Assembly: GCF_000189635.1 (NCBI RefSeq)
Contig: NW_002476235.1
Span: 62,001-126,000 of the forward strand
DNA: 64,000 bases
Source: Tetrahymena thermophila SB210
Taxonomy: Eukaryota; Ciliophora; Oligohymenophorea; Hymenostomatida; Tetrahymenidae
Direction: 5' to 3'
The notes beneath the pieces were generated by a model. The model was not told where the DNA came from and did not search any database. It worked only from the letters and a program-made list of their open reading frames with translations. This document shows positions 6,737-53,734 of the stretch, piece after piece. The translations under genes and the position numbers were made by a program. Within the stretch, counting starts at the first letter, position 1, and the number at the start of each line of letters is the position of its first letter.

Positions 6737-7812
6737 AACCTTTATTTGTAAATGGTCAAGTATTTCATTAAATTTAAGTTAAATTATTTAAAAAAACTGT
6801 AATAAAGCTATTTAAAATTTCATTTTTTAAAAGCAATTGAGTTGTAAAATCATTTTGACGATATATACACGTATCTATTATTTTTAATTAAAATTGACTT
6901 AATTCATTTATCAAAAACTCATTTAATTTAAAAAAAAGAGCTTTAAATAAATAAAATATTTAATTTAAATTCTTAAGTGAATAAAATTAATATATATTTT
7001 TTATCATTTATTTTATGAGAATTTATTGATTATTTAAACATTCAAAAAAAATTATTCAAATTTTTCTTATTTTTCTTCTGGGTTGAATATATATTAAATC
7101 TATTAGACAAATACGCAATAATATTAAGAGAAGAAACTTTTTAAAAAACTTTCATATGAATTATTTTTGTTTGCTTTCTTTAGATCTTATGACGAAATTA
7201 AATTTTGGATAATTTAAAAGCTATTTTTAGATAAATGAATCAAATAACTCAAAACATATATTTATATCTCACTCTTTTTATCAAAGGAAAGTGTTTAACA
7301 TGTTTTATATTTTTCATATTAAAAAACAAATGAAAACTTATTTTTAGAATTTCATAAATTGAATTATTAGTTAACTAAATTTCATTTAAAAAAATATTTT
7401 TTTTTGAATAGTTTTAATTTGTCTTAGACAAAAGTGTAGCCCACCTTTTCTAACAAATTTAAATTTCTATTTTTGCTTAGTTAAGTAGGACATATGAAAT
7501 TCCTACATCAAATTTAGATTTGATGGATTTCAAGTAGAATCAGATTTCGCTTCAAATTAAAAGTTAGAAGAGTTCGCAAATTTGATAGTCACTGATAGAG
7601 TATAAAAGTAAATTTGACAAGAAATATCATATAGATTAGTTAAGCTAAAAAGAGAAAAGTTAAAAAATTTGAAAAAAAAATAACTATATCGTTCAGTTTA
7701 AGAGCAAACTATTTATAAAAAATTTAGATATTAACAAAAAAAAAAAAATATTAGACTTTTAAATAAGAAAAATTTAGGTAAAAACACAAACAAAAAAATT
7801 TATTTAGTAAAA
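6737..7812. other. AT-rich spacer with ABCF promoter region
   Basis: About 1.1 kb with no supported gene. The last ~200 bp before ATG 7813 become A-rich (runs of A at 7670-7745), as is common just upstream of ciliate start codons. Confidence 0.6.
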
Positions 7813-9528
<1,716 letters not shown>

Positions 9529-10484
9529 GAAATGTAAATAGTAATTAAAGTACAGTAAAGCATTCAATTATCTAAAAGATTGGATGAATGAAAGCAAGAA
9601 AGAAAGCAATTCATTCAACCATTATTTTGTTATATTGAATAATAATTAAAATTTTAATAAAAGCAAAAAATACTTTTAAATTCTCATATTCTTAATTCAT
9701 TTTAATATAAAAATAATTTTCTTCACTGTTTTATACATATTTCTATACAATAAAGAAAATAATTTACTTTAATAAAGTATTCCAAATATTTTTCTGTTTA
9801 ATTTAAAAAATTCTCTATTTATTTAATTTTATGTTATGAGTTAAAGATTTAAAGAGTTCATTCATTTATTTGTCTGTCTATTCCTATTTTTAAAGTTATT
9901 GAATCATCAAATAAATAATATGCTCAAAAAATCTTCTAACATATTAAATTTTCTATTAACTTTTTGCAAATTAATATGCAAAAGTATTATTTTTCCATCT
10001 AGAAAAAGCAATACTTTTAAAAATTTCATTACTTGAATCTAAAGTCAAAGTCAATATAAAAATTAACTTATTTATGGTTAAGTACAAACTTAATTTTATC
10101 AAAGAAATTATTTGATATTAAAATTTTCATTTTTTTATGTTACCATTTTATATTAAAAGGTAATTTCATTTTTTGAAAGATTTTTTTCACAAAAGAAAAA
10201 AAAAAGATATGAGTATAAAAAATACTCTTTGAATTTAATATTTAATTAAATTGAGTTTTATAATTATATCACAGGTGCTTTTGTTAATGTAGTTAAATAA
10301 AGTCTTTTAAATTTTAAATTAAAAAGTTTATAAATAAAACATACTATAAAAAACTTTATCAAGCATTTATTTGTGTATTCTGCTTTAATTTACATGAAAT
10401 AGCTTTGATAGCTATTTACAAAGACAAAATAATATTTTTTATTATTAAATTAAAATTTGTTTTAAAAAATTATAATTTTATGAG
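9529..10484. other. AT-rich spacer
   Basis: No gene or RNA was recognised between the ABCF gene and the histidine kinase. Confidence 0.6.
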
Positions 10485-13400
10485 ATGACTAATAAATAAA
10501 ACTTCATTCAAAATATTTTATCAGATTTTTAATAATTAGCAAGAGAGGCTGAAAAGAATAATTATTTGTAAATATGGTTATTAAAACTCTAGGACAATAT
10601 TTAAAAAATAAATTTAGGTCAATATTTAGCCATAATATTTATCAATTTGTGGATATAAAAAGATATTAAATTAGCAAAATAAAATTCAATTGATCATTAT
10701 TTTAAGCACACTCATTAATTAAGGATTTATTCACTTAATTTATCATTTCCCCTCACAAAATTAGTTTTGACATAAGTATGATGAATTAACTATTAAAATA
10801 AATAAATGACAAATAATTTAGTTGATGATCAATTAACTTTAATTGAAAGATAATATCGCTGATTAATATCGTATTTATAAAAAAATCATTGGAAATAGTT
10901 ATTTTTGAAGTAAAATTGAATATTATTTATATTCATCAGCAATTGTAATTAAAACAAAACATATCCTATTGTCAAATAGCCCTACAAATTAACTGGATAT
11001 AATCTTCATTTTTATTAAATGGTATTAGTGTCTTAAACAATAAGGATATTAGCAATTATTATTTTATTGATTCTCGCCTAACTCATTCCATTTATAGCAT
11101 TGGACGGAGACTTTTAAATAGCCAGAATTGTATATACTATAATTATTTCATTGATTTATTTAATTGTACTTTATAATCCATCATTTCTTTCAAAATATAT
11201 TTCTCATTATGTAACACTAACATCTATAGCCATCAACATAATAGGCTATGTTTCTCTCTAAGCATTTGAGTCTAGATTATCTTAAGGCACAAATTAAGAA
11301 ACTTAAAATTATTAGTAAAGTGATTGCAATAAGTAAATTTAAAACATTTTGAGTTATGATGAGTAAACGATAAACGAATTGAGCATAAATTTAAGGTATT
11401 ATATTGGTACATTAAATATAATCAATTTTTTTCCAGGGATTAATCAATTTCATAGAATTATAAGTCTTTCTGTATCAGTTGTACTATGGACATTTTAATA
11501 AGGAGGTGTATTAACAAGGTTAATGTCAGTATCATTTTTAATTGAGATTTTCCTTTTATATTATCATATGAATGTAATAGAAAGAATTCTAAATGAAAAA
11601 TTAGTAGGCTTGAATAGAAAAAATTAATAAGATAATAGATAAAATAGTGCCGATTAAGGATTAAACACTCTTCAGTCTGGTGATTAAAGAAATGTTGGTG
11701 AAATACAGCAGATTCTATATTAAGCCAACTTTAAATCTACTGGTAGAAAAAAATGGAAGATTGATGATATCTTATTTGAGAGAGACTCTATTTATGAAAT
11801 AATAAAAAAATTTGCAAATTTTAATATGATTATTTATACTTCTGAAATGAAAGTCAAATTTATGACTTAAAGTCTTAGAAAATTTTTAGTTAGTATAGAA
11901 AATAATTTAAAGTTAGATGAGGAGGAAAATATTAAAAAAATATTTTAAAAAATCATCATTAGTGATAAGGAAAATTTATATGATCATTTGAAAAAAACAA
12001 TAAATTAATGGTATAATTAAGGCGAAATTAACAGTAGCTTTGAAATGCTTTGTAACAGAGATCGCATTTACTCCCTTTCTAATTGTTAAGTTAATCTTGA
12101 AAAATATTAGCTTTACATTTCAGAAATTTAGGTTGATTAATAGTAATGTCTTTTAATATTATTTAATACTCAAGAAGATGCTAGTACATTTAATTAATAT
12201 AAACACAAAATGATAAATTCAATCTCACATGACCTCAAAACACCTCTAAACGGTATGATTTTACTCCTTGATATACTAAAGGAGCAAATTAAAAATAATT
12301 TTTTAAAGCCTTCTGATTAAAAATTTCCATCCTTTCTAAGTGTATCTCCATTATCTGCTAATGTTAAAATTTAATCAAATGAATAGAACGCATCAAGTTC
12401 CCACTAAATAAATTTAATTTTAGTAAATAAATAAAATTCACAATAAATATAAAACTCTTCAGTTAATATTTTGAATATGGACGGATAATTAATCAAATAA
12501 GATTCACAATTCGACACTGCAGAAGTATTACAATTTAATTAAAATAAAGAGTAAAGCCAAAACAACTATAATACAGATTAAAAAAATTAATAAAAATATT
12601 AAAATGAAACTAAAGAATAATCAAATGTTTTGCCTGGAAATATATAATTAATGAAGAATTCCCATTCTGATATTGTAAATATTGATAAACCCAAAGACTT
12701 TTAACATAAATTGTAACACTCTATGAGTTAAATTTAAGAGAATCAAATTTTAAAAATATAATAGAAGAGTCTCAATAATAATGAATAATAATAGTAACAG
12801 TAGCAATATGTATATAATGTCAAAAAGTAATCTTTTATTAATAAATATGAGCCAAATATGAGCACAAGCTTACTTCCACTTCAAGAAGAAGAAGAAATAT
12901 TTTTTGAGGATTAAAAAAAAAGTAGAAGAGATACTTTAACTGATGATGACTGGTTCGTTTAAAGCTCTCTAAAAGCAGCTACACATAATCATCTTTACCA
13001 TAATAATTTTAGCAATTAGTAAGTTTACAAAACATTTGTTCCATCTCCTTGCTCTTCTAAAGTAAAAAAGGCTGAACAGTAAGAATAAGTAATCAAGATA
13101 TAACCCTCAAAGCAAGACTCTTCCATGCAGTAAATAAAATTAGGATCTGATTTGAAAATGAATGAATTAAAATAAATATCAAATCACACATTTCAAGAGG
13201 ACAGCTTTGGTACATCTGATAAATTGCATAATAATTTTATAGTCATCAAGGTTCCTGAGTCTAATCACAGCTTAACAGAAGGACAAACTATAACAGAACA
13301 TCACCCATTTTTATAATAAAATAATCATTTTTAAACAACATAGAGTGATAATGAGGATTAGCTTGGAAATTTTAAATTAAAAAAAAATAAACTGATACTT

Positions 13401-16372
13401 ACAGACATAAATAAAAATCAAGATTAGAATTAATCCAGCTCATAAAGCTCTACCAATAAAAGCCCAGACTTTCTTGAGCCAACTCTAAAATAAAATTAAT
13501 TGTTAATTCAAGGATAGTTATAATAATAACAACAGCAAATTAATAAACCTAAATTATTTGAAGACTAATAAAATAAATATGCTAAGGATTAGAATGATGA
13601 AAATATTCAGATCTTAGAAACAGATGAAGCTCACAATTAAGTTAAGTTTACTTAGATATAAGATAATTATTTAGCTAAGATATCTCCAGTTGGTTGTTCA
13701 GTTTAAAATTCAAGGTAATTTTAAGCTAAAGATAAAACACAAAACAATATGAGCTTTTATTAAGAAAAGAAATATAATAATCAAAATCTAAAAATTTAGC
13801 TGCACAAGGAATTTTCAGAATCTTAATTATCCCCTCAAAAGAGTAATCTTGCTGTTAATTAGCAAGATTTAGTAAATGATTCGCCTAACCAAAATTTATT
13901 ATTTACTCCTTAAACATAATATTCTTAGTAAATTTAAAAATAACAAGAATTAATTTCAATAAATCAGGACATTTTTAGCAACAATTAAGCTGAAAGTTAG
14001 CAAAAAATTACTCAATAAGAAAAAGAAATTGCAAGAAATTCGTTTAATACCATGTAGAAATAACAAATCCCAGCAGAGTAAAACTCAAATATTAATTTAA
14101 TTTAATCTAAATCAAACAACTAAAACAATAATTAATCAACAAACACTTCAAATAAACAACTGACTGGAAGTTCTCCATCATCAACCCAGTAAGGATATAA
14201 GCATTAATTAAAAGATTAATAGGTAGAATCTTAAAAATAAATTATTCAAATGAAATCACTTTCAAATACTTCGATATCTAACAATACACCAAAGAGTGAA
14301 ATCTTAATTTTAAGCAAAGAAAAAATGATAAGCAATAATTCATAAGATAATATACAATAACTTTAAAATACTGAAAATATTTAGCGCTTGAATAACAAAA
14401 TATTTTCTTCAACCCCAAAAAATTATAGTCAGTTCCACAGTTGCAATGATACAGGATTAAAGAAAGATTCATTAAATTAAGACCAAACTCACGAAGATTA
14501 AAATACTAAATAACCAAAAGATATATTTAAATTCTAAGTGATGAATGAAAAAGATAGAATCACAGAAATAGAAGAAAAGTCAATTGAAGGAGATATATAC
14601 TCTTCAATTTAGAAAAATTATTTTGCAAAAGTAGATGGATAATAAGAAATTTCACCAAACTAAAATAATAAAAAAATGTAAGAGTAATAATAAAATTTTA
14701 AAAGTTTAAAATAATTGCCAAAAAAATCTATATCAAATATAAATAAATTCTAGTATTCTAAAACCACGGGGATAGCATCTTCCCTTTCTATACCTTTTAA
14801 TATTTAAAACTCTTAGAGATCTTTTACATATTCATATAGCGGAAATGAAAGAAAATTTATTTCTAAAATAAACTAAAAGAATGAAACAAAAGAAACAATC
14901 TTTAATTAGACTCCAAATTAATTAGTTAAAAGCAATAGTTAGAATTATTTTACAAGTACAACATTGAGAGATATACATATATTATATTAGTATATATGCA
15001 ATATATAGAAAAATGGTTATCTCTTGGAGTCAAGAATCAATGATTTGATAGACTATTCTACGCTTTTAAATAAAAATGATCTCAGCTTGAATTGTACATA
15101 ATTTGACCTAATGGAAATCCTCACTGAAATGAGAGAGCTTTTCGAGCTTCAAGCAAAAAAGAAGAACTGTAAGCTAATCATTCCAAATTTAAAGCTTGAT
15201 TTGAAAAATGATAAGCCAAGAATAAAACAAATTCTTATTAATATCATTGGAAACGCTATTAAATTCACATTCGAAGGATTTGTAAGGATTATAGTCTAAA
15301 ACTGTGAATCTCCATCAAACCTAATATAAATAATTGTTTAAGATACAGGAATAGGAATTCCTGATTCAATTAAAAAAAATATTTTAAATTTTGCTGCCCA
15401 TATTTAATAAGTAAAAGATGACAACAGGCAAGGTAAACATTTTTATATTTTTTATTAAAATGATTTTTAATATGATATTTTTAACTTTACTTTTATTAAA
15501 TTTCATTTTAATTTGTTTGATATAAATAAATAGGAGTTGGAATCGGTCTAGAAATTTGTTCAAGACTCTGTTAAATTATAGGACCTCTAGATTAGGAAAT
15601 ATAGGTAGAGTCTAAAGTTAATATTGGAAGTAGTTTTTCATTTTTAATCTACTTAAATCATCCACTCTACATAGAGGAAAGAGATTTATCCTCAAATCAT
15701 TATAATCAAAAGAGAAGAAGGAGATAACAAATTTCATACACAACAATTAGATCAGAAATAGAGCACGAAAATAATATTTAAATTCCTTTGTTTGAAACGA
15801 AGCACAACTTATTAGCTAAAAAATAATCACCATAAAGTTAGAATTTAGATTAAGCCCCATAGAACAGCAAAGATTAAATATAGGAAATTGGAGAGACTCA
15901 AATTAAACACTTAGAAAGCAGCAATACTTCAATACTTGTGAAAAAAGAAGCTAATATATTAAATGATTAAAATGATACAATATTAATTGTTGATGACGTG
16001 GCTTTTAATCTTATAGCGCTTAGAAATACTTTAAAATTAATATATCCTAATTTAAATATATTAGAAGCCTAAAATGGCAAATAAGCTGTAGAGATAGTGC
16101 ATGAGTATAATGGAAAGATTGATTTGATAATCATGGATATTAATATGCCTATCATGGATGGGTTTTAAGCCATTTCTATTATAAATTAAGAAATCAAAGA
16201 TTAAGTTTTAGAATACGTACCAATAATAGCTCATACAGCTTTTGATAATAATGAAGATAAATAAAAATGCTTTTAACTTGGTGCAAAAGGATTCTTACCT
16301 AAACCAGTGAAAAAAATAGAATTAGAAAAGTCAGTTCGTGCATTTTTAAGCCCTCAATCTTAATAAATTTGA
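10485..16372 (+). CDS. Hybrid histidine kinase with giant insert in the dimerisation domain
   Basis: Exons 10485..10775, 10980..15432 and 15534..16372 give 1860 residues in frame. The last intron (101 bp) is firm because it restores the G2 box GVGIGLE. The first intron and first exon are less certain; the ATG at 11019 is an alternative start. Order: hydrophobic segments (~110-200, with a further one near 240-320), H-box HDLKTPLNGM with His ~514, a Q/N/S-rich stretch of about 890 residues, then TLRDIHILYQYIC...LESRINDLIDYS (second dimerisation helix, ~1425-1465), N-box GNAIKFT (~1521), G1 box DTGIGIP (~1552), and a receiver domain with LIVDD, phospho-acceptor Asp in MDINMPIMDG (~1783) and Lys in LPKPVKK (~1838). 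It should autophosphorylate on His and pass phosphate to its own receiver at a membrane. The insert contains no TGA across about 2.7 kb, so it is genuine coding sequence. Confidence 0.9.
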
Positions 16373-17005
16373 TATAAAAGATTTTTTTCTAAAATATTTA
16401 ATCATAAAGTGGTTTAATCATTTTCTTTTATATCTAAATTAATTTTTATTACTAATTTATAAAATATTAAATTTATATTTTTAATAAACAAATATATAAA
16501 GAATTTTGATGTTAATAAAATTAATATGTGTGTATTCAATTAAAAAGTTTAATCTTTTCTTTTATATCTAAATTAATTTTTATTACTAATTTATAAAATA
16601 TTAAATTTATATTTTAATAAACAAATATATAAAGAATTTTGATGTTAATAAAATTAATATGTGTGTATTCAATTAAAAAGTTTAATCTTTAAATTATGTT
16701 GAATTTCTCACTCAAGATTTTCAAATATGTTTTTTTAATCTTTAATATATTTGATGAAATAAATACTAAATAATGAAATTATTCATTTTAAATTTTTATA
16801 GTTACTTGAACTATTAACTTATTATCTTTGGTTAAGTTTAACAGATTTTTGAAAATTAAAATTCATTTTTATTCTATTTATATTTAAAAATTCTTATTAA
16901 ACATACTTTTTTTTATTGATTTAAGTTATAATTTATCAATAATTACTTACAAAAACAAAAACAAATATTATATTATTTAGAATTAGTTAATCAAAAATAA
17001 TCAAA
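16373..17005. other. Convergent 3' spacer
   Basis: Spacer between two gene ends (histidine kinase + and hypothetical -). It contains a 134-bp tandem duplication, listed separately. Nothing else was recognised. Confidence 0.6.
16420..16688 (+). repeat. Near-perfect tandem duplication, period 134 bp
   Basis: The block from TCTTTTATATCTAAATT through GTGTGTATTCAATTAAAAAG occurs twice in a row, at about 16420-16553 and 16554-16688, differing essentially by one T in a homopolymer. The near identity points to a recent duplication in the 3' flank of the kinase gene. Confidence 0.9.
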
Positions 17006-18739
17006 TCAAGCAACTTGATTATAAATGTTAATACTCTGTGATTTTACATGATGTTACCTGGTTTTCGGACTGTTAAATTTTAAAGAAGATATCGAATGCT
17101 CTCTTTGCATTTAATACATTTTATGTAGGAGATGAGTGCTATTTTCTGAATTCAGCTTTGATTAAACTACTTAGCTTTGAAATAGCTATAACTTACTGCT
17201 AGGTTTTATAGAGCTTTATGAAGAGTGATGTTTCCTTAAAATTATTTGTTAATCTATACCTGGTAAATTATTTTTAGATAAATACCTCTTTTATTCGCAT
17301 TCCAGAATAAAATCAAATAAAACTCCATTATTAGAACTATTTTAAGAAGGCTATTTACTTTGATGCTTTTTAATAAGAGAATGCATTGATTGGTTACTAT
17401 TATTTTAAAAATTAATGCTTTGAGATTGATAATTCTAAGTTGCTTAGCTAAAACTATTTAACTATGGTTTAAAATAATATTTTTAGCTGGCATCATCCTT
17501 TACAAAATCAGAATTTTGAAAATTGTATTATGATGCAGGACTAATATTTAAAGATCGTTTTCTGGAGTGCTTATTAGAACTAGATGAAGGCGAATCACGT
17601 CTACCTACTCCATGATTGACTAAAAACATTTTCTTTTTTAAAGCTTCCATTTTTTAGCCATAATCTATTTCATTTGTTTCTCCTAAATTAAGAGATTTTG
17701 TTAGGGGTGCACTTTTTTCCTATTTTTTTTTTTATTAGTTACCCGTGTTGCTGGGCTCACTTGAGGCTATATTATTACTAATATTGTTACTCTTTTAACT
17801 TGTGTTTGATATAAGCATATTAGATTTTGATGGAGATTTTAGACGATCTTCTTAAGCTACTATAGACATTTTAAGGAAGTTGTCTCTTTAAAGGTATCCA
17901 AGAGGTTTATTTTATTTCATTTTTTTATCAATTTCTTCTTTTTCTTTATCCATTTTTATGTCATGAGTAGCAAATATAGTGATAGCACCCATTATATTTT
18001 TATTTTGCTGTTAAATTTAATTGCTATTCTCTTCATCTTTTGGTATATCAGCAATTTTGTTTACATTAGGAGAGGTATTCGGGCTCGCATTTTAAATTTT
18101 ATGAGCTACTGTTTTATTTGGGCTTTTTATTTAGTTAATTTGGATATCTCCTTATTATTGTTAGTTAGTCATATTGTTTAGTCCTACTTCATTCTAATTT
18201 TATTGGTTTTAGATTCCTTAACTAATATTTTTTTGGAATTTATGTTTTCTTTCGCTTGTTGTAGCATTTGCTTTTTGTAGAGAATTTAAAAACTTAAGTT
18301 TGATTTTGTTAAATAAAGGAGCTAGATTGTTTATAGCTTGCATCTCTTTTGCTTTAGCGATTTATTCACGTCTTTCCAATAACTTTTCTACTAGCATAAT
18401 TCTATCTTTAACATTTGGAATCATAAGCAATGCTTAATTTATTTATTCTTTATTATTCATATCTCTTATTGAATTAAATGCTTTGAGTATTTAAGCTTGA
18501 CTACTCATTTTTCTTTCCTAAAGCAACTTTTTTGTGAAATTTTATTGAACTAAGATACTTTTGCATTTTTGCAGATGATTTAAACTTTTATTTTAATCAT
18601 GCGTTATTATATTATCTTAGATTACATCATCTTAATTTGATAAAAATGACGAATTAGGAGACACAGATCTAGATGATTTTATAAGTTCATCATATGCTTA
18701 AAAACTCAGTTTATAGTTTTGCGGATTTGAATTAATCAT
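17006..18739 (-). CDS. Hypothetical Q/N/S-rich protein
   Basis: Single frame of 577 residues read from ATG 18739 to TGA 17008-17006. No catalytic domain was recognised. Residues ~75-155 (MSSQAQILKAFNSIRDMNN and LLMIPNVKDRIMLVEKLLER onwards) look helical and charged, perhaps a coiled coil. The rest is low-complexity and rich in Ser, Asn, Gln and Lys, with short basic SPxK/R-type patches (DRLKSPSKS, KRSLNISP) that resemble phosphorylation sites. Such proteins are common in ciliates and are often cytoskeletal or regulatory, but nothing here fixes the role. An in-frame ATG at 18508 is an alternative start giving 500 residues. It converges with the histidine kinase. Confidence 0.65.
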
Positions 18740-19146
18740 CAACTAATCTTCAGGTAAATTTGGTATTTTAAAATATTACAAAAATAAATAAAAATTGCTA
18801 AATTTGATTTATGTTAAACTATTTCATATACCAAAAAATTAATATAAACTTTTAAAATAACTTAATTAAATATCAGGTTTTAATTTTTTTAATTAAAATT
18901 AATCATCAATCAATCTTATCATCCAAAAAAAAAAAAAACTTAGTTTATGTATGTAAAAATGAATGAATGTTGTATTAATCAATCAATGGATAAATTTTAA
19001 TTATTAAAATTTTTTTGTAAGCTTTTTGTTAAATTGAATTTTTTATTTTAATTTAGAGCTTTAAAAGTGAATGAACGAATGTACAAAACGAATGCAAAAT
19101 TAAATGTACTGTTAATAAATTTAGCAATTGTTTATTTTTTAATTTA
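18740..19146. other. AT-rich spacer
   Basis: About 400 bp between the hypothetical gene's start and the 3' end of Rpt2. Contains an A-run near 18925. No gene was seen. Confidence 0.6.
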
Positions 19147-21769: not shown

Positions 21770-24567
21770 TCATTTAATGTATTACATTAGAAGCTAATTT
21801 CTGCTTTCAGTTTTACTTAAGCAATCCTTTTCAGAAAATTACTGAGAACAGCTTAGACTAAATCTTTAATCTTGATTCTAAAATATTCTTCTATGCAACT
21901 CTTCGTCAGCAAAATAAAATTTATTTTTGCGATTCTTAAAGAGCATACACTTTATATTTTCATACCACTTTTTATTTGATGGGTTTGTATTTCTATTTTG
22001 AAATATATCTCTTTGCTGTGCAGAAAGCGCAGTGTATAGTGATCCCGTGTCTTAATCGTCTGTACTTTCAAGCTGGTCTTCTGTAATTTCAGGTTATTCA
22101 TCTTCTTAATCATCATTTATATTTGAATGAGAAAGACGAGCTGTAGATTATGATGTAGAATTAGAGCGAGTTTCAGGATGTTACTTAGATTTAGTTCTGT
22201 TAGGAACTTCTGTTACAGGTTAATTTTCATCTATTTCTTCTTTTTTTTGTTTATCAAATTTTCCTTTATACCTCATTTCAAGAGAAGTCAAACCATTAAC
22301 AAGGATAGTCCTTTGATGAATGATAATGAAGAACAACGGAAAGCAAGTTATAATAAATTAAATTATTAAAATTGAAATACTAATATAAGCAATAATTGGA
22401 TTAAATAACTATGGGCAAGAATCTATAAATTGATGAGAGTGCTCATCTTCTATATCATCTTACTAGAGCTCTTTTAGAGCAAAAATACACGCAATAAGGA
22501 TAGAAATCTAAGACAATGCTTATGTTACTAGCATAAAAAAGAAATATCTGTGATTTCTATATTTTAAATGAAATGATTACTGAATATTGACTTTGGGAAA
22601 AAAATAGAAAATATTACTTCGCTCCAACACAATTTTTTATGAAGGGACAGTGATGGTCCATAACGGCAACACATCTGTTACAAAAATCACAATGTTTTGA
22701 TCTAACTGGTTTTATAATACAACATTCTAAACAAAGCTCCTCAAACTCTTTCTTGCATAATAGTAACCAAAAATTATTCACAAAAGTATCTTTTTATGAA
22801 GCAGGTTAATTGTTGTTTAAATCAAGTTAATAGCTTTCGTAACCTAATTGTTTAATATAGCCTGGATCGCTTTTATAAGAGCAGAATAAGCAATAGAAAG
22901 AACATAAGTAAATACTATAGAAAAAGACTATAAATCCTATAAATAAATCAGTATCTATTAATTAATTAAAAAAATAATATTTAGAATTTGTTTGACTGTT
23001 GATAAGTTAGTTGAATTAATAGTTTGTTAGTTTACATGGTAAAATAAAGATGAACCCAATAAATCCTAAAATGTTAATAATTCTGAGAATATAAGAGTAT
23101 TTATTCATGCCTTTTGTTGGACCTACTCTAGTCTATAATTTTAGTCGGTTAAAAAATTTAATATCTCCCAGTAGAGAAATTAATGAGTCCAAATGATTTA
23201 TTTTGCTTTCCCATTCCATTATTTAATATTAATCTACAGTTTCTCTTTTTTCTTTTAACTTTTTTTATATTTTTTCTTTCCTCCAAATAGCAAATTAGAG
23301 AGGTGTCTAATTCTCATTATTTTTTAATTGTTTATTTGCACCCTGTATTAGCAGAAATTTAACAACTGAATAATCTTTACTACGTATTCCTAAATGTAAT
23401 GGTGTTTCTTTTGATACAGGATGTTATTCATTAATATCTATTCTCTTTTAATTTTCAAATTCATCCATCTTAAGCAGATATTTCATTATGTGAAGATTTC
23501 CTTCAAAGCAAGCAATCTCAAATGTTGAGAGATTTAAACCCTTACTTTATGTCTTTTCAAATATATCTACACCTAGTTGCTGAAGTTTCATCTAATTTTA
23601 GAATATTTTGTTAAACAAGCAAAATTAATATATAATTACTTACAATAACTTTAAGAGATCCTCCTCTTGCAGCAGAATGAATAATTTTATCACCTAAATA
23701 TTTTGTTTTTAATTAGGGTTAAAAATATAGTAGAAAAATTCTATTTATTTTCCATAAAATATTAAATTAATGCAAAATTTTTAGTTAAAGAAAGAAAAAT
23801 TATTTATATATTAAAATAAGAAGTAAAACAAACAGCGACATTTTTAATTTTAGAAATTCTAAATATAAAATTATTTGAATACCTATTTCATTAATATGAG
23901 TATCGTAACGCGCTCCTTTTTCTATCAATTTGAGAGCCATATCCTTTATTTTTAAAAATTTTTAAATAAAATACCGGTTTTTAGACAATATTGATTGATA
24001 ACATAGTTTAAGCTATGATAGTGATAGTTGAAAATAAAATAAATCTAATAAATTATTTAAAACTACCTAAAATTCATAATATACGGCGTATTATAGAGCA
24101 TTATATCCTTCCTCACAATTCAAAGCTTTATTGCTATTTATATATTCAATTTTGTCTTCTTATGGAATATCAGCTTATTATAAATAATCTAAGAAAAGAT
24201 TAAAAGCAAATTCATTATTATCCTTCACTGCTTAAACTAACACTAATAATAAAAATAATTTATATTTAAAATAAATAAAATAATCAAACTATAAATTGCA
24301 GTTAATCATTTTAATTAGATTTTATATTGATAGTTTTTATATGTAAATAGGAAAACAAAAACAATCTAAGAATTTACAATTAAATTTTGGAAATTTATTC
24401 AAGTTTATGCCTTTATAAACCTTTAAGATTTCAACAATGTAATCTAGTTTAACATTTTATTGATTAGATAGACTTTTTAGAAACTTTATTGCTTCTGAAT
24501 AATTTTTTGGTAACTGCATCCCAGAAAAACATTCAACAGAGTTTTTAATATTTTTTTCTGGTATCAT
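21770..24567 (-). CDS. Ankyrin-repeat DHHC palmitoyltransferase
   Basis: Exons on the minus strand: 24378..24567, 24067..24242, 23883..23943, 23644..23693, 22618..23591, 21770..22556, giving 745 residues with all phases consistent. The N-terminal ~320 residues carry ankyrin-type repeats ([46 protein letters not shown]). Then come membrane segments, a Cys-rich domain ([18 protein letters not shown]), catalytic DHHC at ~471-474 in [20 protein letters not shown], two more membrane segments and a variable acidic tail. This is the HIP14/Akr1 (ZDHHC17) architecture: protein S-acyltransferases in Golgi or endosomal membranes that transfer palmitate from acyl-CoA to Cys via an acyl-enzyme. The join at 22557..22617 is strongly supported because it rebuilds NCVGAKNHRYF. 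The first exon and its intron are the least certain part. Confidence 0.92.
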
Positions 24568-42236: not shown

Positions 42237-44772
42237 TCAAACAATAATATTATTATTTTAGTTTTATTTAGAGAAAAACTTTTTGTTAGTGTTGTTGTTC
42301 CCATTACTAACAGTACTCTAATTTTACATAGTTGAACGGAATGCAGCATCATTTAGTTAATATGAACTATTTGGGGCAGAGGGATCCAAATTTAAAGAAA
42401 CCACATTACTTTAAGGTCTGTAAGTATTGTTATTTGATTTTGGTTTTACCATATCTAGATTGTGAACTACACCTTAAGTATCATCATTATGCATTTCGCT
42501 TTACATTACAGGAGTTGCTACATTTCTACTTTATAAAGTTAAATTTCCTGTATTTGCTAGTACTGATAAACCTCCTGTTTATTATTACCCCTTCCTTATT
42601 GGGGATTATTACATAGTGGAGGCATTTTAAAATGAAGAAGATGTTAAACGATTTTATTACAATTAGCTTAATGGATGATTTGCAGCTTTGTTCTAAAATA
42701 CAATTGAGTTATTGAGGTTATTTCTATTCTTATTTTAGGCTACATCGTCATCAAATAAATTATTAACAGGTGTATGCTCTATAGTTTATTTTCTTTCAAT
42801 ATAATTATTTTTTTTAGGTGAAACAATTGAGGATCTCATTGGTGAGCTAGGAGACTGATCTTAGCCATCAAAATCATCTCTATAATTTTAAATTTTTTAA
42901 TTTAAAGTAGGTTACCTATTAATCTAATTTCCTTGTGTATTATAGATATCTCTTTAATACTAATATTCGATATCTGTTTTAACATCCGAGTTTTAGTTTT
43001 GTTAATATATTTAATTTTAATTACCATTATTATTTAAAACTTCTTTTAAAGGCACTACTTAATTATTATTATTGCTAGTTATTTATTGTCCTTGATTTGG
43101 AAACGAAGCAGTTTTTTATGAATTATATTAAGCATTTTAAATTATTTATGAATTTTACATAGTAATAGAGTTTTGCTTATATAAAACTTAATTATTAGAA
43201 GAATTAACATTGTTTACATTCTAGTTAGGAAAAGGAGCTACTTAAGCACTCTAAGCAGACATGCTATTTTATTTTTAAATAACTGAAATAACAGGTTAAG
43301 AAGATTATTAGTTAGAAGTTGCAGCTGGAAGAGCGTTCATCTAAGTATGAAGAGGCTGGATAAAGCTGTTCTTTTTAACAAAGGTCTAATTTTACTATGT
43401 CTAATAAACTTAAGGTGGTTATTATTGAATTACTTATTCCTGTTAATAGAGCTATTGATTTTGAATCATTGACTGCTAGTGATCCTATCTAATGATACTA
43501 GATTAATCATGGGCAATAGATTAATTATGGGGATCTTAAATAATTGAAGTTGCATACACATGCTACCTTTCTTAATCGATTGTTTTTACTCCTGAGAATA
43601 ATCTTACATCATCTCTGTCCAAAAAAGTTTTTAACTTCATTAAAAATAGCAATATAATCATTTGTAGAATGCTGATGGTAAAATCACCACCTAAAAATAA
43701 GTTGCTTAACGGATAGAGCTTTTGACTTGCAATCTAGAAGCAGCTTTATTATGAGTTAGGTTATCCTCTATTGACCTAATTTTAAAAAATAAATATGTTA
43801 ACTTTAATCTATAAAAATGATTTATTTAATATTTAATCGAAATTAAAATATTTAAATTGAGGTAAAGTTGCTATAATTAATCAATAAACAGCATTTATTA
43901 AATAGTAACCATTCAATTTGTTGCTTGGCTATAAATTTTTAATGTTAATATTGATGTAAAATTATTCATTTTAAATATAGCATTGAATGCATATTTATAT
44001 TTATGAAGAAAATAATAATATTTGAATAATTAATTACGTCTGTAAATAGGTACATTTTACTGACAGAGCATATTCCTGCGCATTTCCATGATGATTCAAG
44101 ATTTTGTAATAAATTGACAGTGCTTTGAGACAGAGGAGTATACTATTTACATCCTAATGCATTTATAGGACCTGATGGATCAAAATATCCTGCTAATGGA
44201 TAACTCGATTAAGACTAAGATGAATAATCACATGGACAGTTACCAGAACAAAAATTAGCTTAGGCAGTTTATGAAGCATCTAAAACAGATGATGGCCATA
44301 TTTTTTAGTAAACCTAGCTGCAAGAATAGGATACAGAACTTGATTGATCTATTGTTTAGATTATTATACCTCCAGCTAATGAGCAAGCTAAAAAGACAAA
44401 TACAAAGAAAAGAGTGAGCTCTACTTTAATACCAAGCTCAAAATTTTTCATCATTAGCTGAATAAAAGCAAAAAGGGCAAGTCCAAAAATAAAAACGCAC
44501 AAAATAATATCTGTAATAAAAAGTGCATATGTTTCCGTTGGTTGGCTACCCATCCAACTGCTTCCATCATAGCATGCTCCAACAATACTTAAGATAAATC
44601 CTATTAGTGCACCCAACATAATGAAAATCAGTAAAAATTTTATTATTGGGACAATTTGAGTTGGAGCGCATCCACATAATTCTTGATAAACTTTTTAATC
44701 GAATCGAGGGTTAGATTTTCCATAGTCAGAGTGTGCTTGTGTGTGATTTAGCATATAATTATTTTGGGACAT
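42237..44772 (-). CDS. Tetraspanin-like protein with very long Q/N-rich cytosolic tail
   Basis: Exons 44038..44772 and 42237..43775 (minus), joined phase 0 to phase 0 across a 262-bp intron, give 757 residues. The first part has four membrane segments: TM1 around PIIKFLLIFIMLGALIGFIL, TM2 around FITDIILCVFIFGLALFAF, TM3 around VELTLFFVFVFLACSLAGG and TM4 GGDFTISILQMIILLFL. Between TM3 and TM4 is a large Cys-containing loop (CSGNCPCDY, GCKQY, WKCAGIC). This topology and loop fit tetraspanins, though a canonical CCG was not seen. After TM4 comes a tail of roughly 460 residues, rich in Gln, Asn and Ser, with few recognisable motifs. Tetraspanins organise membrane microdomains; such a tail is far longer than in animal members. 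The second exon is open throughout in the ciliate code. Confidence 0.82.
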
Positions 44773-49903: not shown

Positions 49904-52756
49904 ATGTTGTCTAAAATTATTCGTAATAACTCCCTCTACAACACCGTTAAGAAGGGTTTCGCGTAAATAAACTACTTTGCTTTAAGATTTTACTTATTTG
50001 ACTGAGATTTCTCATTTTTAGATGAAAAATTAAATCTTATGCCAAACTATATTTATTGCTAACCAATATTTTAAACTTTTAAAATTAATTTAATTATTAT
50101 TAATAATTAGCTCTGGCTCTAATAGCATTATCGGTATTGATTTGGGTACCACTAACTCTTGTGTTGCCATTATGGAAGGTAGCGCCCCTAAGATTATTGA
50201 AAATGCTGAAGGTTTCAGAACTACTCCCTCTGTCGTTGCTATCCTTCCCGATGGTTCCAGACTTGTTGGTGCTCCCGCTAAGAGATAGGTAAGCTTTATG
50301 ACTATACTTTACAAATCTTACTTACTCAATCCTACTTCTACTTTGTAGTTTAACTCAAACATTCAAATGATGGCTTTTTATTTTAAGAAGCTTTACATTT
50401 TGCAAATATTTTTCATACCACCTCTTCATAAAAGTTTTCAAATTTTTCATGAAAATGCATTAACTTTGAAACAAGAGTTAAATGGAGACTGAGAAGCCCA
50501 TCATTATCAACTAACATTACTTAAGTTTCAATAAGTTAAGGAATAAATGGAGCAAGCCAATCCATTTCTTATGGTTTTGAAAACATTTCACCAAAAATTT
50601 TCTCATATTTACATTCAAGCAGTAAATAAATGGAATGATTGCAAATAATATAATTCTCTTGACAAAGCTTATCAGCTAGCAAGCAATATAAATAAAAGCA
50701 TGGCATATAAACATTTAACCTATAGGATAAAATAAAGATGGCATAATAAAGTAAGAGCACTTAATATGATAAGAAAAATAAACATGATGTTTACTTCTTT
50801 CATTAAGAAGAAAGATCTAAATAACTAAAATTAATTAGGAATAACAAATAAATAAATAATAGATAGTTTATAATTCAAACAAAGATACTTAAATAATCAT
50901 TATTAATTAATTAATTAGCATTATGTGGTTAAATTAACAAATGTAGAAGCAAGAATTTAAACATATATTTTCACATTCATTTAATCATTAATTAAAAATC
51001 CAAAAATCATATCAATAATATTTTTAATTTAAAATAGGCTGTTACTAACCCTGAAAACACTCTTTATGCCACCAAGAGATTGATCGGTAGAAAGTTCGAA
51101 GACCCCATGGTCCAAAAGGATGCTAAGCATTTATCTTACAAGGTTGTTAGAAACTCCAACGGTGACGCTTGGGTTGCTGCTTAAGGTAAGAACTACTCTC
51201 CCTCTCAAGTTGGTTCCTTCGTCTTAACCAAGATGAAAGAAACTGCTGAAGCTTATTTGGGCAAGAATGTTAAGTAGGCTGTCGTTACTGTCCCTGCTTA
51301 TTTCAACGATCAATAAAGATAAGCTACCACTGATGCTGGTAAAATCTCTGGTTTGGAAGTTAAGAGAATCATCAACGAACCTACCGCTGCTGCTTTGGCT
51401 TACGGTATGGAAAAGACTGGTGGTAAAGTTGTTGCTGTCTATGACTTAGGTGGTGGTACTTTCGATATTTCTATTTTAGAATTAGCTGATGGTGTCTTCG
51501 AAGTCAAGGCTACCAATGGTGATACTTCTTGCGGTGGTGAAGATGTTGATGGTATGATCGCTGAATACATCATCAAGGAATTCAAGTCCCAATCTGGTAT
51601 TGATATTCACTCTGACAAGATGGCTATCCAAAGAGTCAGAGAAGCTGCTGAAAAGGCCAAATGCGAACTCTCCTCCACCAACACCACTGAAATCAACTTG
51701 CCTTACTTGACTGCTGATGCTTCTGGACCCAAGCATTGCAACTTATAAATTACTAGAGCTAAATTCGAAAGCTTGTGCGGTGATTTCTTAAAGAAGACCA
51801 TCAAGCCCTGCGAAATCTGCTTAAAGGACTCCGGTATTTCCAAGGACAAGATTGACGAAGTCATCTTAGTCGGTGGTTCTACTCGTATTCCCATGGTTCA
51901 AAAGCTCGTTGCTGACTTCTTCGGTAAGACCCCCAATAAATCCGTCAATCCCGATGAAGCCGTCGCTGCTGGTGCTGCCATCCAAGGTGCTGTCCTCGAA
52001 GGTACCGTTAAGGACGTTATTCTTCTCGACGTTACCCCTCTTACCTTAGGTATTGAAACTTATGGTGGTGTCATGACCAAGATGATTGAAAGAAACACTA
52101 CCATTCCTACCAGAAAATCCTAAGTTTTCTCTACTGCTGGTGACAACTAAACTGTCGTCTCTATCAGAGTCTTCTAAGGTGAAAGACCCATGGTTAAGGA
52201 TAACAAGCTCCTCGGTAATTTCGATCTTGCTGATATCCCTCCTGCTCCTAAGGGTGTTCCCCAAATCGAAGTTACTTTCGATATTGATTAATCTGGTATC
52301 GTCCACGTCACCGCTAAGGATAAGGGTACTGGTAAACAACAAAACGTCGTTATCCAATCTTCTGGTGGTCTCAGCAAGTCTCAAATCGAAGATATGATTA
52401 GAGAAGCTGAAGCTCACAAGGAAGAAGATAACAAGAGAAGAGAACTTGTTGACCTCAAGAATGAAGGTGACAAGGTCTATCACAACACTGAAAAGTCCCT
52501 CCAAACTCACAAGAGCAAACTTCCTTCTGAAGTTGTTGCTGAAGTCGAAAAGGAACTTGCTGAACTCAAGACCTCCCTTGACAACTCTAACTTAGGATCT
52601 GAAGATGTTGAAAAGCTCAAAACTTAAATTCAAAATGTTAACAATGCTGCCCAAAAGATTGGTGAAGCTATTTACAAGAACTCTGGTGCTTCTGAATCTG
52701 AAAATCAATAATAAAACTAAGAACATTAACACGAAGAAGAAAACAAGCGTCAATGA
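49904..52756 (+). CDS. Mitochondrial Hsp70 (DnaK/mortalin type)
   Basis: Exons 49904..49962, 50111..50288 and 51038..52756 give 651 residues; introns are 148 and 749 bp. The N-terminus [19 protein letters not shown] is a basic, Ser-containing mitochondrial presequence. Hsp70 motifs follow: [72 protein letters not shown] and [19 protein letters not shown]. The DnaK-like substrate domain follows, and the C-terminus ends EENKRQ. This chaperone drives matrix import and folding using ATP, with J-protein and GrpE partners. Codon use is strongly biased to C- and T-ending codons, unlike neighbouring genes, fitting very high expression. Confidence 0.97.
50413..51037. other. Coding-like sequence inside mtHsp70 intron 2
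   Basis: The 749-bp intron 50289..51037 is far longer than most introns here. On the minus strand a frame ending at TGA 50415-50413 reads [19 protein letters not shown], then [17 protein letters not shown] and [13 protein letters not shown], with balanced codon use. Further upstream, in another frame, a signal-like start [20 protein letters not shown] is seen near 50790. On the plus strand a frame from ATG 50547 reads [20 protein letters not shown] onwards and is open to 51083. Only one can be real; either a nested gene, a retained-exon isoform or a gene remnant. Confidence 0.35.
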
Positions 52757-53734
52757 GATGTTTGAATTTCTTAAATAATTTAAAACTTTTTAAAGTGTAA
52801 TCTAAATTAATAAATTTAATATCTATAAACAAAAATTTTTGTCTAATTGTTCAATACATGTTTAAAACTACCTATTCTTGACATTTCCCTCATTTCTTTT
52901 AATTCCTACCATTCCTTATTTACTTAGTTACTTGCATATTTTTCAATTTAATTGGATTTGTTAAAATGAAACTTAATGCAATTAGTTAGGAAATTATAAA
53001 CAGCTAATTATATTTCTTTTTTATCATATTTAAATAAAATTTATTTAAGAAACTTTATTTCATTGTATTTAGCAAATCGAATAAATCAATATATTCTTTA
53101 AATAGATTATATAATTGTTTGATGCTTAATTTTTTATGATATTATCAACACTGATATTCAAAATAAATATCTAAAATTTACATATTAATGATTATATTAT
53201 TTACTAATAAATTAATTATAAAAAATAATTTGAGATTTGTGGTAATTTTGATCTTTCTAAAATGAATAAGAAAAAAATAAAATAAATATCACTCTTTAAA
53301 ATACTTTAAAAATCTAATATCAAATTTAGTTATATCGAAAATCTGATATTTATGCATAGTTCTAGTATTTAATTATTGTTTTAGATAGATATTTTGTTTA
53401 TAAATATAAGTTAAATAAAAAATATTCTGAATGCTTTAGTTTAATTATTTTAAACTTTTTTAGACAATTAAAAATAAAATAAAAAACAATTTTAGTTTAT
53501 TCATAAAATGAAGACTTAAAATTCATAATAATTTTGGGTATTTAAAAATAAGTAAGCAAAGATGTTTTTATATAAAATAAAGGAATTAAGTTCAATATTT
53601 TTTTTAATAATTAATCGAAGTAATATTATTTGTAAATTTGTTAAAAAGTTAATTTATATTATGACTACTAAAACAAATAAGAAATGTATAATACTTTTGA
53701 AACAAGAGAATATTAAAGTTTTAAATCATATACT
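52757..53734. other. Convergent 3' spacer
   Basis: Nearly 1 kb of AT-rich DNA between the 3' ends of mtHsp70 and the WD-repeat gene. Nothing was recognised. Confidence 0.6.

What the first reader, a model, noticed from the sequence alone, without database searches (positions are those of the whole stretch)
12206..15120. About 890-residue Q/N-rich insert inside the histidine-kinase dimerisation domain
The phospho-acceptor His lies in a normal H-box (HDLKTPLNGM), but the second DHp helix (LESRINDLIDYS) follows only some 890 residues later. The whole stretch lacks TGA and is rich in Gln, Asn and Ser. DHp domains are normally a compact two-helix hairpin of about 65 residues. A low-complexity loop of this size at the hairpin tip could act as a condensate-forming or scaffold module, or tune autophosphorylation.
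Basis: partly seen in the sequence, partly recalled or inferred. Interest (0 to 1): 0.75.

Follow-up and report, generated by a model that had tools for sequence, protein, structure and literature searches.

The report
Histidine kinase with giant disordered loop
A ciliate gene encodes a membrane sensor kinase whose phosphate-accepting helical hairpin appears to be interrupted at its tip by about 890 flexible, glutamine- and asparagine-rich residues; the place is unusual, but such flexible stretches are common in these organisms.

Summary
Read in the ciliate code (TAA/TAG=Gln), window 11019-16372 is one hybrid histidine kinase gene, 1750 residues, with an evident 101-nt intron (15433-15533) outside the insert. 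Phospho-acceptor His404 lies in a good H-box. HisKA matches only through helix 1; 889 codons (12291-14957) separate it from helix 2 and the ATPase domain. They contain no TGA, against 14 and 32 in the other forward frames, carry in-frame codon signal, and show no frame-preserving intron-like interval of 45-600 nt. Leaving the insert out extends HisKA from profile 2-31 to 2-63 of 66. In an uncut alignment, 42 of 42 bacterial kinases have 5-8 residues opposite the insert. AlphaFold2 gives both flanking helices high confidence and most of the insert low confidence; packing of the helices was not verified. Best reading: an otherwise canonical, probably active kinase with a mostly disordered loop at the hairpin tip. 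Q-rich expansion is documented for ciliates with this code (PMC10942620). Q/N clustering does not exceed composition, and condensate formation is untested. No ciliate homologue could be examined.

The parts
11019..16372 (+). Hybrid histidine kinase gene, two exons as read (11019-15432 and 15534-16372, stop TGA included), 1750 aa with TAA/TAG = Gln; start at the first Met of the open frame
   Evidence: Spliced translation open to a single terminal stop; HisKA, HATPase_c and Response_reg matches
11019..12167 (+). N-terminal membrane part (hydrophobic stretches at about residues 1-32, 31-59 and 162-182) plus a further part without Pfam or PDB match
   Evidence: Hydropathy; no Pfam family at E<=10 and no PDB sequence at E<=1 for 11019-12227
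12168..12290 (+). DHp helix 1 with H-box; His404 = codon 12228-12230
   Evidence: HisKA profile 2-31; His opposite His in 41 of 42 bacterial rows; model helix at residues 385-428, pLDDT 78-96 by tens
12291..14957 (+). 889-residue Q/N/S-rich insert at the DHp hairpin tip
   Evidence: No TGA, composition; coding signal, no frame-preserving intron-like interval of 45-600 nt; no Pfam family; pLDDT mostly about 28-45 by tens
12699..12848 (+). Predicted Q-rich helix A inside the insert (residues 561-610)
   Evidence: Model helix, pLDDT about 50-81 by tens, no relatives aligned there
13917..14057 (+). Predicted Q-rich helix B inside the insert (residues 967-1013)
   Evidence: Model helix, pLDDT about 55-83 by tens, no relatives aligned there
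14958..15074 (+). DHp helix 2
   Evidence: In register with bacterial helix 2; best of 1727 positions by a profile from bacterial rows; model helix 1313-1352
15075..15432 (+). Linker and first part of the ATPase domain: N-box IGNAIKF, G1 DTGIGIP
   Evidence: HATPase_c match; motifs
15433..15533 (+). 101-nt intron GTAAAC...TAG, 9.9% G+C, between G1 and G2 boxes (predicted, no transcript)
   Evidence: Splicing joins ...RQ-GVGIGLEI... in frame, and HATPase_c then runs over profile 2-107 of 111 instead of 2-59
15534..16372 (+). Exon 2: G2 box GVGIGLEI, linker, receiver domain (Asp1673; DD, T, K motifs present), stop
   Evidence: Response_reg 6.4e-25; motif positions

Best explanation
One ciliate gene makes a membrane-bound hybrid histidine kinase. 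Helix 1 (with His404) and helix 2 of the DHp domain still belong together and form the usual hairpin, but the turn at its tip has grown into a mostly disordered loop of 889 residues. ATP is bound by the ATPase domain after helix 2, His404 is phosphorylated, and the phosphate goes to Asp1673 of the receiver domain and then presumably to an HPt protein. The loop leaves from the end of the bundle far from the membrane (general knowledge of histidine kinases) and is most likely a tolerated, lineage-typical expansion of a disordered stretch at a permissive site. It may have secondary effects: an entropic cost for hairpin closure, loss of the short-loop constraint on cis versus trans autophosphorylation, and a tether or phosphorylation platform. 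Shown by sequence: one open frame, domain order, catalytic motifs, insert position, coding character. Inferred: hairpin closure, activity, disorder in the cell, every effect of the loop.
For: 0 TGA in 889 codons; codon signal best in this frame overall and in 8 of 10 sub-windows. HisKA stops at profile 31 in exon 1 as read and reaches 63 with the insert left out, 30.1 to 38.7 bits. In the uncut alignment 42 of 42 bacterial rows have 5-8 residues opposite the insert. Helix 2 ranks first of 1727 positions. Join control: 0 of 378 other segments and 1 of 500 shuffles reach the true helix 2. Model: helices 385-428 and 1313-1352 confident, 778 of 1088 residues under pLDDT 50. Key motifs of DHp, ATPase and receiver present. 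Q-rich motifs are expanded in ciliates with TAA/TAG=Gln (PMC10942620: passages and two of three parts of section 12).
Against: Helix 2 alone gives no HisKA match at E<=10, and a short helix-2 HMM misses it at E<=10. The join-control margin is thin: 49.2 bits against 48.6 for the best other segment, and the best shuffle has 55.8. Packing of the two helices in the model was not verified. No transcript and no ciliate homologue was available.
Confidence: 0.62

Rival explanations
1. The loop is a selected functional module: Q/N-rich segments and Q-rich helices assemble kinases into clusters or condensates and so tune signalling.
For: 108 of 810 80-residue windows hold 30 or more Q/N, while the rest of the protein reaches 20 at most; two Q-rich predicted helices; D, E, S, P enriched above base composition, so the stretch is not mere nucleotide drift.
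Against: The densest window (34 Q/N) is reached by 261 of 1000 shuffles of the insert, so no special clustering; charge is abundant and nearly balanced (98 K/R, 90 D/E); another open frame of the window has a Q/N-rich run of 444 residues, so the composition is not special to the kinase.
Confidence: 0.2
2. The insert, or much of it, is removed at RNA level or the locus is two transcripts, so the mature kinase has an ordinary hairpin.
For: No transcript data. One intron-like interval was found in the insert (14684-14753, 12.9% G+C), and 1.8% of its 60-nt windows are at or below 11.7% G+C, against 0.1% in the upstream exon.
Against: That interval is 70 nt and not a multiple of three; 0 frame-preserving intron-like intervals by the criteria used, and intergenic DNA has 13.4% of such AT-rich windows. 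The evident intron has 9.9% G+C, the insert 24.1% with codon signal in its frame. No in-frame stop. The scan covered 45-600 nt only; one long intron was judged by composition and coding signal.
Confidence: 0.07
3. The protein is cut within the insert into a sensor-helix 1 part and a helix 2-ATPase-receiver part that reassociate: a split kinase.
For: A long disordered, exposed stretch is a likely protease substrate (general knowledge); nothing specific found.
Against: No Pfam domain of any kind, so no recognisable protease or self-splicing domain, in the insert; cleavage by other proteins is not testable here.
Confidence: 0.06
4. The kinase is dead or degenerate and the insert is a symptom of relaxed constraint.
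For: Insert in a core domain; weak helix 2 match.
Against: His404, N, G1 and G2 boxes and receiver Asp, Thr, Lys motifs are present; HATPase_c 61.9 bits and Response_reg 87.9 bits.
Confidence: 0.05

Closest known systems
HisKA-type hybrid histidine kinases (solved sequence relatives: 7z8n, called GacS; 2c2a, HK853 by recall)
   Same: H-box, two DHp helices, ATPase boxes, receiver; with the insert left out, the 246-residue core aligns over nearly its whole length with these chains
   Different: 42 of 42 aligned bacterial kinases have 5-8 residues where this one has 889. 61 of 63 bacterial ATPase hits have helix 1 upstream at 65-95 residues; the same measure here is 968
Ciliate 'atypical histidine kinase' family, reported as greatly expanded in ciliates (PMC3341644, passages)
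   Same: Ciliate code and kinase type; plausibly the family it belongs to
   Different: No ciliate member could be compared; whether others carry inserts at this place is open
Q-rich-motif proteins of ciliates with TAA/TAG = Gln (PMC10942620, passages and two of three parts of section 12)
   Same: Gln codon shares of the insert (TAA 0.60, TAG 0.16, CAA 0.19, CAG 0.06) resemble those printed for T. thermophila (56.8, 17.0, 21.2, 5.0%)
   Different: The paper treats motifs proteome-wide; 'histidine kinase' does not occur in its main text

Membership tests
HisKA hybrid histidine kinase | Phospho-acceptor His in H-box | tested here: met
   HDLKTPL, His404; HisKA 30.1 bits over cut-off 26.9; His in 41 of 42 aligned bacterial rows
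HisKA hybrid histidine kinase | Both DHp helices present by sequence | tested here: met
   With the insert left out: profile 2-63 of 66, 38.7 bits. Not contiguous in the chain, and helix 2 alone is not matched
HisKA hybrid histidine kinase | Compact hairpin, helices packed together | tested here: inconclusive
   Both helices confidently predicted but contact not verified; Foldseek rows shown span about 100-160 columns
HisKA hybrid histidine kinase | HATPase_c with N, G1, G2 boxes | tested here: met
   61.9 bits, profile 2-107 of 111, exons joined; motifs
HisKA hybrid histidine kinase | C-terminal receiver domain with phospho-acceptor Asp | tested here: met
   Response_reg 87.9 bits; Asp1673
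HisKA hybrid histidine kinase | Autokinase and phosphotransfer activity | not testable with these tools
   Needs biochemistry
Q/N-rich prion-like domain | 80-residue windows with at least 30 Q/N (criterion recalled, not from a call) | tested here: met
   108 of 810 windows, maximum 34; but 951 of 1000 shuffles of the insert also reach 30
Q/N-rich prion-like domain | Self-assembly or condensate formation | not testable with these tools
   Needs experiment

The most novel reading that the evidence does not exclude
Because a loop of 889 residues no longer fixes how helix 2 returns to helix 1, the DHp bundle can close in either hand and also swap helices between dimers. Q-rich helices in the loop could promote such swapping, making a kinase whose autophosphorylation mode (cis, trans or in higher assemblies) depends on its own local concentration or on modification of the loop.
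Probability: 0.1. Interest if true: 0.8.

Novelty: new variant of a known kind. Interest (0 to 1): 0.45.

Why it matters
The turn of the DHp hairpin is believed to decide whether a kinase phosphorylates itself in cis or in trans (PMC11371814, passages, citing Ashenberg et al. 2013, which is not held). A natural kinase in which that turn is replaced by an 889-residue chain would be a direct test of that rule and of how much disorder a core signalling domain tolerates. It also suggests one reason why HisKA may be missed or half-annotated in some ciliate kinases.

Tried and rejected
Own-genome paralogues: no genome is held for the window. Viral contigs: 9 stretches matched a pattern but none encoded a relative, and a degenerate H-box DNA pattern had 0 matches. 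The single genome scan returned 50 loci, all with bacterial record titles. The insert has no Pfam family at E<=10 and one PDB sequence match at E 0.1, taken as chance. The N-terminal part has no match. Pfam matches TP6A_N (E 0.06) and Adeno_terminal (E 0.12) to pieces of the kinase were taken as chance, being below their cut-offs. Internal duplication as origin of the insert: within it only short imperfect repeats were listed. SQ/TQ motifs: 19 in the insert, about 24 expected from its composition, so no enrichment. Six paper searches on ciliate or Tetrahymena histidine kinases and on insertions in DHp listed no title about such an insert; lists were cut at 12 to 20 rows, the library holds open-licence papers only, and I looked into only four papers (PMC3341644, PMC4029085, PMC10942620, PMC11371814; passages, and for PMC10942620 also two parts of one section).
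Full report
What is there. The window reads as ciliate nuclear DNA: 23.8% G+C and long frames that are open only if TAA and TAG mean Gln. The species was not determined; Gln codon shares of the insert resemble those printed for Tetrahymena thermophila in PMC10942620 (passages). The gene runs from the first Met of the frame at 11019 to a TGA ending at 16372, with one evident intron of 101 nt at 15433-15533 (9.9% G+C). Joining its exons brings the ATPase G2 box (GVGIGLEI) into place and gives 1750 residues with one terminal stop. I did not scan the parts outside the insert for further introns. Pfam finds HisKA, HATPase_c and Response_reg in the order of a hybrid histidine kinase. Hydropathy gives three membrane-like stretches in the first 182 residues by a simple threshold. 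The N-terminal 403 residues have no Pfam match at E<=10 and no PDB match at E<=1. His404, the N, G1 and G2 boxes and the receiver's Asp1673, Thr and Lys motifs are present.

The insert. Between the end of helix 1 and the start of helix 2 lie 889 codons (12291-14957). TGA is absent from this frame, against 14 and 32 of 888 in the other forward frames, and 29 of 889, 19 of 888 and 7 of 888 on the reverse strand. The chance of that is about 1e-6 to 2e-7. Codon usage trained on the kinase flanks, the ABC gene and the Hsp70 ORF prefers this frame overall (mean score -0.100 against -0.253 and -0.174; all are negative, as the insert's composition differs from the training set). It does so in 8 of 10 sub-windows covering 12291-14750; one sub-window prefers another frame and one is a tie. 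Intergenic DNA (9535-10900 and 16400-17000) and the intron score lower in each frame. A scan for GTRA...TAG intervals of 45-600 nt with at most 14% G+C found one in the insert, of 70 nt, whose removal would break the frame. AT-rich 60-nt windows (at most 11.7% G+C) make up 1.8% of the insert, 0.1% of the upstream exon and 13.4% of intergenic DNA. Ser, Asp, Glu and Pro are 1.8 to 2.1 times the base-composition expectation, Gln and Asn 1.4 times, while Arg, Cys, Tyr and Ile fall to 0.2-0.6. That is the profile of a disordered protein stretch, not of drifting AT-rich DNA. By a hydropathy-charge rule (recalled) the insert falls on the disordered side and the four other parts taken whole on the ordered side, though single 100-residue windows outside the insert also fall on the disordered side.

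Does helix 2 belong to helix 1? In exon 1 as read, Pfam HisKA matches only profile positions 2-31 (30.1 bits, cut-off 26.9). With the insert left out it matches 2-63 (38.7 bits), and solved kinases such as 7z8n and 2c2a align across the DHp and ATPase domains. Without any joining, MAFFT aligned the 1088-residue fragment with 42 bacterial kinases (42 of the 50 loci; 8 with partial or longer matches were left out), so that helix 1, helix 2 and ATPase fall in register (every second row shown). Over all 42 rows, 5-8 residues stand opposite the 889 of the insert, and 41 of 42 have His opposite His404. The loci were found through patterns of this same core, so some conserved columns, NAIKFTFE above all, are conserved by selection. 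A profile from the bacterial rows put helix 2 first of 1727 positions (z 4.2; with linker z 5.1), although the register came from the same alignment. Against this: helix 2 alone gave no HisKA match at E<=10, and a short helix-2 HMM missed it. In the join control the true helix 2 scored 49.2 bits (helix 1 alone 39.5) against 48.6 for the best of 378 other segments, with 1 of 500 shuffles higher, at 55.8. Its place right before the ATPase domain is the strongest further argument.

How unusual. Over the 50 bacterial loci, 61 of 63 ATPase hits have helix 1 upstream at 65-95 residues (median 68); 2 of 63 have no helix-1 hit upstream. In the window protein the same HMMs give 968. The survey is biased, as loci were fetched by similarity to the core with the insert left out, and the HMMs were built from 42 of those loci. 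In the window itself other frames also hold Q/N-rich runs, notably 444 residues at 42357-43688 (-) and runs in the 17006-18823 (-) frame; neither open frame has a Pfam match at E<=0.01. These are frames, not proven genes.

Structure. AlphaFold2 on alignment A1 gave mean pLDDT 48.2 and pTM 0.40, with 778 of 1088 residues under 50. Helix 1 (residues 385-428), helix 2 (1313-1352) and the ATPase core have block means mostly above 80. Inside the insert two Q-rich stretches (561-610 and 967-1013) are predicted as helices with block means up to 81 and 83, without any related sequence to support them. Foldseek's best PDB hits are GacS, RetS and HK853, but the 50 rows shown span about 100-160 columns, with TM-scores by target length of 0.57 or less. 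This fits helix 2 plus ATPase; aligned ranges were not printed. So I could not check helix 1 against helix 2; the second structural aligner was not available.

Mechanism. The best reading is a canonical hybrid kinase with a giant disordered turn. The tip of the hairpin is where a chain can leave without crossing the core (inference). The handedness of this turn is believed to decide cis or trans autophosphorylation (PMC11371814, passages). An 889-residue turn should impose no handedness, so both modes become possible (inference). Closing so long a loop should cost several kT compared with a short turn (polymer estimate, recalled), which the dimeric bundle must repay. Ciliates with this code show higher Gln use and more Q-rich motifs (PMC10942620), and histidine kinases are reported as greatly expanded in ciliates (PMC3341644, passages), so an accommodated expansion is the economical account. 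A condensate role is possible, but Q/N density is not clustered beyond composition: 261 of 1000 shuffles reach the observed maximum.

Verdict. Observation confirmed, interpretation partly supported. I rate it a new variant of a known kind. The decisive comparison, other ciliate kinases at the same site, could not be made here.

Noticed in passing
16412-16690: 133-nt tandem duplication (2.1 copies, 98% matches) just downstream of the kinase stop codon.
   Followed up: no
50663-52756 (+) and 50897-52942 (-): An Hsp70 gene on the + strand (HSP70 E 2.9e-234); the antisense frame matches Pfam NAD-GH (PF10712, 431 bits), which looks like a Pfam family built on Hsp70 antisense frames (that explanation is recalled).
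   Followed up: no
42237-43880 (-): 547-residue open frame with a 444-residue run of about 30% Gln+Asn and no Pfam match at E<=0.01: another Q/N-rich candidate protein.
   Followed up: partly
17006-18823 (-): 605-residue open frame convergent with the kinase gene, Q/N-rich in part, no Pfam match at E<=0.01.
   Followed up: no
22455-23924 (-): Open frame with ankyrin-repeat and DHHC palmitoyltransferase matches.
   Followed up: no
7618-9528 (+): ABC protein with two ATPase matches and an ABC_tran_Xtn linker, ABCF-like by domain order (family name recalled).
   Followed up: no
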